Source of the DNA: Erwinia amylovora
GTDB lineage: Bacteria > Pseudomonadota > Gammaproteobacteria > Enterobacterales > Enterobacteriaceae
DNA: 64,000 nt
Reading direction: 5' to 3'
NCBI RefSeq assembly: GCF_017161565.1
Contig: NZ_CP066796.1
Coordinates: 2,542,001 to 2,606,000 of the forward strand
Each line of letters begins with the position of its first letter. Within the stretch, counting starts at the first letter, position 1. The position numbers and the translations under genes are program-made. The notes beneath the pieces are model-generated. The model ran no database searches, was not told the origin of the DNA, and was given only the letters and a program-made list of their open reading frames with translations. Below, one piece after another: positions 44,119 to 64,000 of this stretch.

Positions 44119-47100
44119 ATGAATGCGAATCCCCCCACGTTACCTTCTGGCTCCAACAGTCATAACCTGAAACTGACCGCAACAACCCTCGCACAGGAAG
44201 AAATTTTCCTGATAGAAGAGACGCATCAGCAGGCGAATTGTTGGCTTTCCTTTTCAGTGGACATCAACGGCCAGCTGGACGTCGATAAACTGGCCAGGGC
44301 GCTGGAACATTTGGGTCAGCAGGTCCCCCTGCTGCAAACGCGTCTGCTGTATCAGGACGGCCATTTATGGCAGCAGCCTGCTGCCGAAAGCCCCCTGAGC
44401 CTTGAACGGGCTGATTTGCGCGGCCACGCTGCGCCTGAAGCGGAATTCCAGCAGCTGCTGATGCAAACCCCGCCGGGCAACCGATGCACAGACGGCGCGC
44501 TTTCGCACTTCAAACTGTGCCAGCTCGGTGAAGATCGCTATGGCCTCGCCGCCTGGCTTCATCACAGCCTGATTGACGTACGCTCATGGACAATCCTTAA
44601 ATCCCTGCTGGCCGACAGCTATAACGCCCTGATGGCCGGTTCGCCGCTGCCGACATTTCCCTGGCTGAATGCTTCCTCTTTGGCCTGTGAGGAGCAAGCC
44701 TGGCTGAACTCATCAACCAGCAAAGACGATGCCGCATTCTGGCAGGAGTACGTCAGCAGGCTGCCCGCTGCGGCCATGACGCAGCGTATTATTGGCGAGG
44801 AGAGAAGAGCGCTCAACGTCCGTGATACCCGCCGCCTGCCAGAAGAAAAACGTGCGCGTATACGGTCAGCGGCCAGCCAGCAGGGAGTCAAAGAGCCGGT
44901 TATCTACCTCAGTGCGGTTGCGCTGCTGATGCGCCATCTTACCGGTCAAGAAACGGTCAGCCTAAGTCTGCCGGTGAAAGGCACCCGCAACGCCGAACAG
45001 CCCGGCATGACCTCCAACGTTGTTCCGCTGATCCTCGACCTCCCTGCACGGGCAACCGTGCAGCAAGTTCTGGCGACCGTTGAGCAAGAACTGCGACGGG
45101 TATTGCCACATCAGCGCTACCGCGCCCGGGCGATCCAGCGCCACGCCGGGCTGAACGCCCGACAGGGGTTCGGGCCGCATGTGAACATCATGCTGTTTGA
45201 CCACGGTGTCTCATTTCAGGGTTGCCAGTCGCAAGCGCATTTCGGCCGCCATATTGACAGCAGCGATATGCACTTTACTTTCTGGGGCGACTCCCGCCAC
45301 GGTGCGCTGGACATCCTGCTGGATGACGCGATTGAAGGGCACCGATCCGCAGAGCTGGCCGCCGTTGGCAGCCAGCTCGACTTTTTCCTTGAGCAGCTAA
45401 CTGAAGCAGCGGATATACCGCTTTCCCGGCTGGATGAAGCGGCCGAACGGCACGCTCATCCGCAGCTGGCACAAAGTTTTTATGCCCTGCGCCGTCGCCC
45501 CGCCGATGCCGGCGTACTGCGCTGGGACAGGCAGATCAATCAGCTGCTTAGCCAGTTTTATGCCGCTCAGTGGGCCGGCGCGGGCAACAGCCCGCTACCG
45601 GTCAGTAAAATTTGGCTGGATAACAGCGTTGTCAGCTTCAGTAAAATACACCCGCTGGCCGTCCCGGTTGATGCCGCACCGGGCACCCTGCTGGCGGCGG
45701 ATAGCCACGGCTGGCAGATTGCCGTTGCCGATGGCGCAGTGCACATAGCGGGCTTTTCCACGCTTGATGGCGCCGCCTGTTGCCCGCTTGCCCTGGCGCA
45801 AGCCTCCGGCATCAGGCCCGGATCGCTGCTGAAAATCCTGGGTGACGGTGAAGCCCGCCGGCTAACCCAGGCATGGGAAAACGCTGTAGAGCACCAGAGC
45901 TGGTGGAACCCGCGCCTGAAACAGCATAACGGCGGCTGGTTATCGGCAGCCCGGCCGCAACAGCCTCAGATACTGCCGCGCTGGCAGACAACCGAATGGA
46001 CGGAAGTTGCCAGCCAACGAAAAGACACGCTGCCTGCACTGCTTGCTGCCTGGCTGGTTTATATCGCCCGCGACAGCCGACAGGCATCGCCGCACATCGG
46101 CGTACGGTTAAGCGCCAAAGGCCATCCCGCGCCTGAAGCGCTGTTTGCTGCGGTTGTGCCGTTTGCCGTTCCTGTCGATCTCTCATTATCGTTCAGCCAG
46201 ATTGCCGATGCCGTCAGTGAGGAGTACCGCGCCCTGCTCAGTCATCTGCCCTGCCCGGCGGAGTGGCGACAAAGCAATGCGGGGAAAGCGGATGCTTTCA
46301 CCCTCTGCGTGGTAGAAGATGCTGGCACGGCGGAGAGCGAATGCTCGCCGGGTAACCTGCTGACGCTGCAATACCATAGCCAGCGTAACGCGATACGCTG
46401 GCTGTATAACGCCAGCTTCCTGAGCACTGAAGAAGCGGAGCGTCTGACCCCTCGCCTGCAAACGCTGCTTGGCGCGGCGGCGCGCACTGAAAACGCCGAC
46501 ATGCCCGCAGCGGCTTTACCGCTGCTGACAGCCGCCGATCGCCAGCTGCTGGAGAGTTGGCACGCGCCTGCCAGCGCTAACCCGCCGGCGCAATACCTGA
46601 CGCAGATGTTTGAAGCTCAGGCGGAGCAGAGCGCCACGGCCGTTGCGCTGGTAAGCGGCGAGCAGCAGCTTACTTACGCCGGGCTTAACCAGCGCGCCAA
46701 CCAGCTGGCCCATTGCCTGCTGGCACGCGGCGTTTCGCCGCAAGATCGTATCGCTTTCTGCCTGCAACGCGGCGTTGATATGGTTATCGCCATGCTGGGC
46801 ATCCTCAAAGCGGGTGCGGCTTACGTCGCGCTCGATCCGGCCTATCCGGGCGAACGCCTGCACTATATGCTGCAGGACGCCGCGCCGATCTGCCTGCTGA
46901 CCGATGCGCTGGGGCGTCAGACAATGGATACCTCCGCCGTTGCTACGCTGGCGCTGGACGAGGCTCTGCTGCGCGACTATCCCGCCAGTAATCCCGAACT
47001 GAGCCATCCCGCCCTGACGCCGCAAAGTCTGGCGTACATTATCTATACATCAGGCTCGACGGGGCAGCCGAAGGGCGTGATGATCAGCCATGAGAATATG

Positions 47101-64000: not shown

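What the first reader, a model, noticed from the sequence alone, without database searches (positions are those of the whole stretch)
44119..64000. Very large NRPS with no stop inside the window, inserted after ypfN
One frame of more than 6,600 codons with five full modules and part of a sixth sits directly after the conserved dapE-ypfN block, where E. coli has ypfH. I do not recognise a known product with this module order. The combination of an unusual first module, two duplicated Thr modules and three dual E/C domains suggests an uncharacterised, partly D-configured lipo- or cyclic peptide of a plant-associated enterobacterium.
Basis: partly seen in the sequence, partly recalled or inferred. 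Interest (0 to 1): 0.82.

Follow-up and report, generated by a model that had tools for sequence, protein, structure and literature searches.

The report
Giant six-module Erwinia peptide synthetase
The window holds most of a very large enzyme that probably builds a six-unit peptide in the fire blight bacterium; a sister species' copy was described in 2010, but its starting module looks like a hybrid in which a condensation domain sits where relatives carry the catalytic part of a formyl-adding domain.

Summary
The open frame is real: window 44119 to 65196, 1.2 kb past the window end; 7025 aa, six modules and a terminal thioesterase. The genome is Erwinia amylovora. The gene is the orthologue of EppT of E. 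[quoted passage not shown]), 90% identical and colinear. I saw no product in my searches.

New here is the first module: a starter-like condensation domain, an orphan formyltransferase C-terminal-like domain, then only the C-terminal half of a condensation domain, then A-T. The same block occurs in same-phylum proteins behind a catalytic formyltransferase domain (20 of 21); that domain was found in none of 13 condensation-type proteins. The module looks like a formylating start module whose catalytic lobe was replaced. Against: a catalytic Gly of the condensation domain is Val in all four Erwinia, and no structure could be predicted. A 2.2-kb internal repeat is homogenised within each species (162 to 0 informative sites). 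Two Ejp617 "plasmids" are closed circles of such modules, probably assembly artefacts.

The parts
44119..64000 (+). NRPS gene (eppT orthologue), 7025 aa; true stop at 65196, outside the window
44176..45438 (+). C1, starter-like condensation domain (codons 20-440); active site HHSLIDV
   Evidence: PF00668 1.2e-42, residues 22-372; best solved chains CDA peptide synthetase I, EntF, 1l5a and 7c1k; motif
45439..45843 (+). orphan formyltransferase C-terminal-like domain (codons 441-575)
   Evidence: profile of 12 sequences, the window's included, hits Fmt 2.8e-8 and ArnA; Formyl_trans_C in 10 of 12 members at E up to 1; control
45844..46554 (+). C-terminal half of a condensation domain without the HHxxxD lobe (codons 576-812)
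   Evidence: profile matches lie in the C-terminal half of solved C domains, e.g. 8hlk residues 201-458, 2.7e-8
46600..48051 (+). A1, code DLYNNALTYK (Ala-type)
   Evidence: specificity recalled, Ala also in the published EppT prediction
48118..48309 (+). T1
48367..49695 (+). C2, HHIVSDG, LCL-like (subtype inferred)
49750..51225 (+). A2, Thr code
51625..52926 (+). C3, dual E/C motif HHLMSDKGD
52981..54459 (+). A3, Thr code identical to A2 (boundaries approximate)
54856..56157 (+). C4, dual E/C motif HHLMSDKGD
56218..57693 (+). A4, code DLWQIGMIDK (Gln in the published prediction for EppT)
58009..59337 (+). C5, near-copy of C2
59392..60834 (+). A5, code DASTVAAVCK (Tyr/Phe-type; DAFTVAAVCK in G408); boundaries approximate
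61237..62538 (+). C6, dual E/C motif HHLLAGGGD
62596..64000 (+). A6, code DVWHISHIDK (Ser-like), cut by the window end; T6 and thioesterase lie beyond
47614..49833 (+). R1 copy 1 (A1 tail-T1-C2), 2220 bp
   Evidence: 99.73% to copy 2
57256..59475 (+). R1 copy 2 (A4 tail-T4-C5), 2220 bp
   Evidence: 99.73% to copy 1
42211..43537 (+). dapE and ypfN, conserved left neighbours of the insertion

Best explanation
The gene encodes EppT of Erwinia amylovora, a single-protein six-module NRPS with a C-terminal thioesterase. Inferred product: an N-acylated hexapeptide, acyl-Ala-D-Thr-D-Thr-Gln(?)-D-Tyr/Phe-Ser, with D residues made by the dual E/C domains of modules 3, 4 and 6 acting on residues 2, 3 and 5, and release as a free acid or a ring by the thioesterase. 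The start module descends from a formylating module (FT_N-FT_C-half C-A) in which the catalytic formyltransferase lobe was replaced by a starter-type condensation domain. FT_C and the C-lobe remain as a structural platform for the A domain, so initiation is by acylation, not formylation. Shown: frame, domains, order, codes, orthology, no FT_N match, site. Inferred: substrates, stereochemistry, acyl start, direction of the domain replacement, platform role, release. Biological role: unknown; an extracellular peptide of the plant-associated phase is my guess.
For: Frame and domains; 6316 of 7025 residues identical and three one-residue gaps against the 7028-aa gene of G408; published EppT description; best solved matches of C1 are CDA, EntF, 1l5a (VibH, recalled) and 7c1k; FT_C profile to Fmt 2.8e-8, with 12 of 14 listed hits (E up to 1) being Fmt or ArnA; half-C profile matches lie in the C-terminal half of C domains (24 of 25 listed hits are NRPS or PKS chains); FT_N in 20 of 21 FT-type relatives and in 0 of 13 C1-type proteins, the window's included; FT_C profile finds all 21 FT-type proteins (E at most 3.8e-7), best of 200 shuffles 0.22; 3 PF01648 phosphopantetheinyl-transferase matches in the genome.
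Against: The Gly of HHxxxDG, listed as catalytically important in VibH (table in PMC1894796, passage), is Val in C1 of 4 of 4 Erwinia and Gly in 8 of 8 others, so C1 may be altered or dead here. No acyl ligase or exporter among the nine downstream proteins scanned; upstream genes were named by position only. No MbtH match in the genome. In the window protein alone Formyl_trans_C stays below Pfam's cut-off (15.9 against 21.1 bits, E 0.015), and 2 of 12 C1-type members show none even at E up to 1. One of the 21 FT-type proteins shows no FT_N and two no FT_C at E 0.05. The tree needs two label changes and does not prove one origin. No structure could be predicted. No product is known to me.
Confidence: 0.72

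Rival explanations
1. C1 is inactive in Erwinia and the peptide starts with free Ala; C1, FT_C and half C are all relics.
For: Val for Gly in the active-site motif of 4 of 4 Erwinia; residues 501-800 are the three least conserved 100-residue steps between the two species (69-76% against 90% overall).
Against: Both His and the Asp of HHxxxD, and the Asn of the GPxxN stretch, are invariant in all 12 sequences; residues 101-500 are 86-91% conserved; C1 is kept in 4 Erwinia species and 7 other genomes.
Confidence: 0.2
2. The FT_C plus half-C block is functional, for example as the docking site for the acyl donor, not a passive platform.
For: 19 invariant columns through the block in 12 sequences; kept where no FT_N is found.
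Against: Fast divergence of codons 501-800 between the sister species; half C lacks the HHxxxD lobe.
Confidence: 0.15
3. The module order is an assembly artefact of repeats.
For: Repeats of 2.2 kb at 99.73%; drafts of E. mallotivora and E. piriflorinigrans and the Ejp617 'plasmids' show odd joins.
Against: Colinear in G408 with three one-residue gaps; EppT of 7028 aa published from Sanger plus GS20 data; the repeat copies differ at 6 sites here and 57 in G408.
Confidence: 0.03
4. The product is a phytotoxin, as Kube et al. suggested.
For: Suggested for E. pyrifoliae; among 37 Erwinia genomes the full first-module match lies only in the window genome, G408 (E. pyrifoliae), G405 (E. piriflorinigrans) and G400 (E. 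mallotivora), with a remnant in G406 (E. psidii).
Against: No experiment known to me; the authors call its role unclear.
Confidence: 0.25

Closest known systems
EppT (EpC_11160), Erwinia pyrifoliae Ep1/96
   Same: size and six modules as published; in G408, taken for E. pyrifoliae, 90% identity, colinear, and the same dapE-ypfN site
   Different: A5 code DAS... against DAF..., A6 differs at one position; A5 tail and T5 of E. amylovora are nearer to module 2
Formylating initiation modules (linear gramicidin, anabaenopeptilides, kolossin A; PMC8949500 passages)
   Same: formyltransferase-related domain at the start of the assembly line; the FT_N-FT_C-half C-A proteins found here are homologous over FT_C and half C
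   Different: no catalytic FT_N found; a condensation domain stands in its place. The three named systems themselves were not compared
Starter condensation domains (CDA C1, EntF; VibH for 1l5a and rhizomide RzmA for 7c1k are recalled)
   Same: first domain of the line, best matches in the solved structures
   Different: followed by FT_C and half C, and DV instead of DG at the active site in Erwinia
SolG-type modules (NCBIfam NF041803, solanimycin)
   Same: C-A-T modules score highly; the second half of the protein, over several stretches, exceeds the model's cut-off (3207 against 2200 bits)
   Different: the model has 1163 positions against 7025 residues here; the score sums repeated modules

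Membership tests
EppT orthologue | full-length, colinear, about 7028 aa, six modules | tested here: met
   7025 against 7028 aa in G408, 6316/7025 identical, three one-residue gaps; published size 7028
EppT orthologue | same genomic site | tested here: met
   dapE-ypfN-NRPS-DcrB-Rhs in the window genome and G408
EppT orthologue | same predicted substrates | tested here: inconclusive
   four of six codes identical to G408, A5 and A6 differ at one position each; no predictor was run here
Starter condensation domain | nearest to known starter C domains | tested here: met
   top solved hits by E-value are CDA (two sequences), EntF, 1l5a and 7c1k, of 19 sequences; subtypes partly recalled
Starter condensation domain | HHxxxDG active site | tested here: not met
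   HHSLIDV; Gly kept in 8 of 8 non-Erwinia relatives
Starter condensation domain | N-acylation of residue 1 | not testable with these tools
   needs product or enzyme assay
Dual E/C domains (C3, C4, C6) | HH[I/L]xxxxGD near the N-terminus | tested here: met
   3 of 3 (motif definition)
Formylating (F) start module | catalytic formyltransferase N domain | tested here: not met
   0 of 12 C1-type members (E up to 1) and 0 of 1 further one (E up to 0.05)
Formylating (F) start module | formyltransferase C-terminal domain | tested here: met
   profile 2.8e-8 to Fmt; 10 of 12 members by Pfam at E up to 1; the window protein alone is under the cut-off
Known MIBiG product | matching cluster | not tested
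   no MIBiG here

The most novel reading that the evidence does not exclude
C-FT_C-half C-A-T is a distinct, unrecognised kind of NRPS initiation module, made by replacing the catalytic lobe of a formylating start module with a condensation domain. It would show that start chemistry can be swapped from formyl to acyl at the FT_N/FT_C border while the A-domain platform is kept.
Probability: 0.5. Interest if true: 0.55.

Novelty: new variant of a known kind. Interest (0 to 1): 0.42.

Why it matters
The start module marks a natural fusion border at which the way a nonribosomal peptide begins seems to have changed, which matters for understanding assembly lines. The orphan product of a fire blight species gets a testable prediction. 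The homogenised repeats explain why this gene breaks assemblies and why two database plasmids are probably not plasmids.

Tried and rejected
Rejected: unknown gene (it is EppT); repeat collapse in this copy; MbtH in the genome or a transporter among nine downstream proteins; a second full condensation domain in module 1 (only its C-terminal half is found); the first module on plasmids (255 plasmid records match, none covers 80% of it).

Paper searches for condensation plus formyltransferase modules gave 1, 0 and 9 papers; I read passages of two of the nine, the rest as listings. The search for EppT by name gave 3 papers, two of them on Erwinia, of which I read passages. PMC3927617 and PMC2827408 held none of the NRPS terms I looked for. 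The NRPS in the passages of PMC9371280 and PMC3567147 goes with a polyketide synthase and is, I infer, another locus. The term pJE04 gave 4 papers, one of them a genome list (listing only). Locus tags guessed gave one listing, not opened. The phage integrase that Kube et al. place upstream of eppT was not looked for.

Dropped before counts: of 56 frames, 9 second fetches and 13 with under 300 of 378 columns were left out of the 34-row tree; some of the 13 begin directly with the half C. Of 37 Erwinia dapE matches only the 30 fetched as loci were checked for the neighbour. Of the 57 and 47 rows I saw the first 24 each; its shuffles were of the FT_C stretch only.

Full report
What is there. The window lies in contig C1 of a two-contig genome of 3.84 Mb. 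The second contig has 28,381 bases; 8,000 bases of it match Erwinia amylovora plasmids over their whole length at 100%, so the organism is E. amylovora. The NRPS frame starts at 44119 and ends at 65196, beyond the window. It encodes 7025 aa with six adenylation, six carrier and six condensation domains and a thioesterase motif. Its G+C is 0.60-0.72 in 2-kb steps, the rest of the window 0.45-0.59.

Known or not. Kube et al. 2010 (PMC2897811; passages read) described EppT of E. [quoted passage not shown] The gene in genome G408 is 7028 aa, at 1277811-1298897, within 40 bases of the published place, so I take G408 for E. pyrifoliae. It is 89.9% identical to ours (6316 of 7025) with three one-residue gaps. 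The window gene is therefore the E. amylovora eppT. In the listings and the passages I saw no product for it; most subscription papers are not in that library.

Site. Of 37 Erwinia genomes all have dapE. The E. coli record shown has ypfN-ypfH-tmcA. After our gene come a DcrB-family protein, a PAAR-Rhs protein, Rhs pieces, then tmcA and a zinc peptidase like ypfJ; G408 has the same order up to tmcA. E. mallotivora (G400) carries its NRPS behind genes of the hemCDXY type instead, and E. psidii (G406) has only a remnant in the matching place (species by equal contig lengths); both have dapE-ypfN with tmcA.

Chemistry. Codes by anchored motifs: A1 DLYNNALTYK, A2 and A3 DFWNIGMVHK, A4 DLWQIGMIDK, A5 DASTVAAVCK, A6 DVWHISHIDK (the script misread one position in A2 and A3, corrected by hand from the printed sequence). 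The assignment to Ala, Thr, Thr, Tyr/Phe and Ser is recalled; [quoted passage not shown] C3, C4 and C6 have the second His motif of dual E/C domains (definition in PMC1894796, passages), so residues 2, 3 and 5 should be D.

First module. Codons 20-440 are a condensation domain whose best solved relatives are CDA peptide synthetase I, EntF, 1l5a and 7c1k, to my knowledge all starter or aryl-starter types. Codons 441-575 match the C-terminal domain of formyltransferases: single sequence 7.4e-5 to Fmt, profile of 12 sequences 2.8e-8, with 12 of 14 listed hits being Fmt or ArnA. Codons 576-812 match the C-terminal half of condensation domains (2.7e-8). The whole first-module stretch was found in the window genome and 7 others of 392 sampled in the family; five more genomes matched over C1 only. 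In 37 Erwinia genomes 4 have it whole and one as a remnant; 3 further genomes matched over C1 only.

Origin. The profile of FT_C plus half C also finds same-phylum proteins without C1. Of the 21 that could be compared over 300 columns, 20 carry Formyl_trans_N and 19 Formyl_trans_C in Pfam at E up to 0.05. Of the 13 C1-type proteins, the window's included, none shows Formyl_trans_N; Formyl_trans_C shows in 10 of 12 at E up to 1 and in the thirteenth at 0.0023. As a control, the FT_C profile finds all 21 FT-type proteins at 3.8e-7 or better and no shuffle of 200 better than 0.22. In the tree of 34 rows the C1-type needs two changes; a single C1 clade is not rejected (p-AU 0.255), and several branches are long. 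I read this as replacement of the catalytic formyltransferase lobe by a condensation domain, once or twice; the reverse direction is less likely because FT-type rows come from more families of the sample, but it is not excluded.

Caveat. The last residue of HHxxxDG is Val in 4 of 4 Erwinia and Gly in 8 of 8 other C1 domains. Either the start substrate changed or C1 lost activity. No structure was obtained.

Repeats. R1 (A1 tail-T1-C2 and A4 tail-T4-C5, 2220 bp) differs at 6 sites within E. amylovora, 57 within G408, and 185-208 between species; 162 informative sites group by species, none by position. The Thr modules show the same in part (121 to 55, 2 crossed). The tail of A5 with T5 in E. 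amylovora is 96% like that of module 2 but 83% like its own positional partner in G408. I read this as concerted evolution by conversion inside one gene. An assembler's consensus could mimic it for the 6-site pair, hardly for the 57-site pair.

Side result. Plasmids pJE03 (6417 bp) and pJE04 (3237 bp) of Erwinia sp. Ejp617 are covered in every base at 90% or more by the G408 gene, have no stop round the circle, and hold two and one carrier domains. Their sum, 9654, is close to the 9648 bp between the R1 copies in G408. They are most likely closed loops of the assembly; the Ejp617 chromosome was not at hand to test this.

Noticed in passing
L046 (NC_017443.1) and L047 (NC_017447.1), whole: Ejp617 'plasmids' pJE03 and pJE04 consist wholly of NRPS modules, open all round, with no room for a replication gene: probable assembly circles of eppT.
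   Followed up: yes
window 47614-49833 and 57256-59475: 2.2-kb repeats homogenised within each of two species (162 to 0 informative sites).
   Followed up: yes
L045:9969-16556 and L044:7447-8520: NRPS of E. mallotivora sits behind hemCDXY-type genes; E. psidii has a remnant there with overlapping matches to the C1 and thioesterase pieces, not resolved: a second site in the genus.
   Followed up: partly
L043:10160-15969: In the E. piriflorinigrans draft the A1 core is followed by the end of a dual-type C domain and an A4-like core: deletion or misjoin, not resolved.
   Followed up: no
L045:12411-16556: In the E. mallotivora draft the A1 core and one R1 copy are followed by an A5-like core at the contig end, as a collapse of the two R1 copies would give.
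   Followed up: no
L012:4457-13459: DcrB-family protein, PAAR-Rhs protein and further Rhs pieces (one with a colicin/pyocin DNase domain) directly after the NRPS.
   Followed up: no
L014 and L015 (G000:C1:515001-545000): Two further condensation-domain matches on the minus strand, a second NRPS locus.
   Followed up: no
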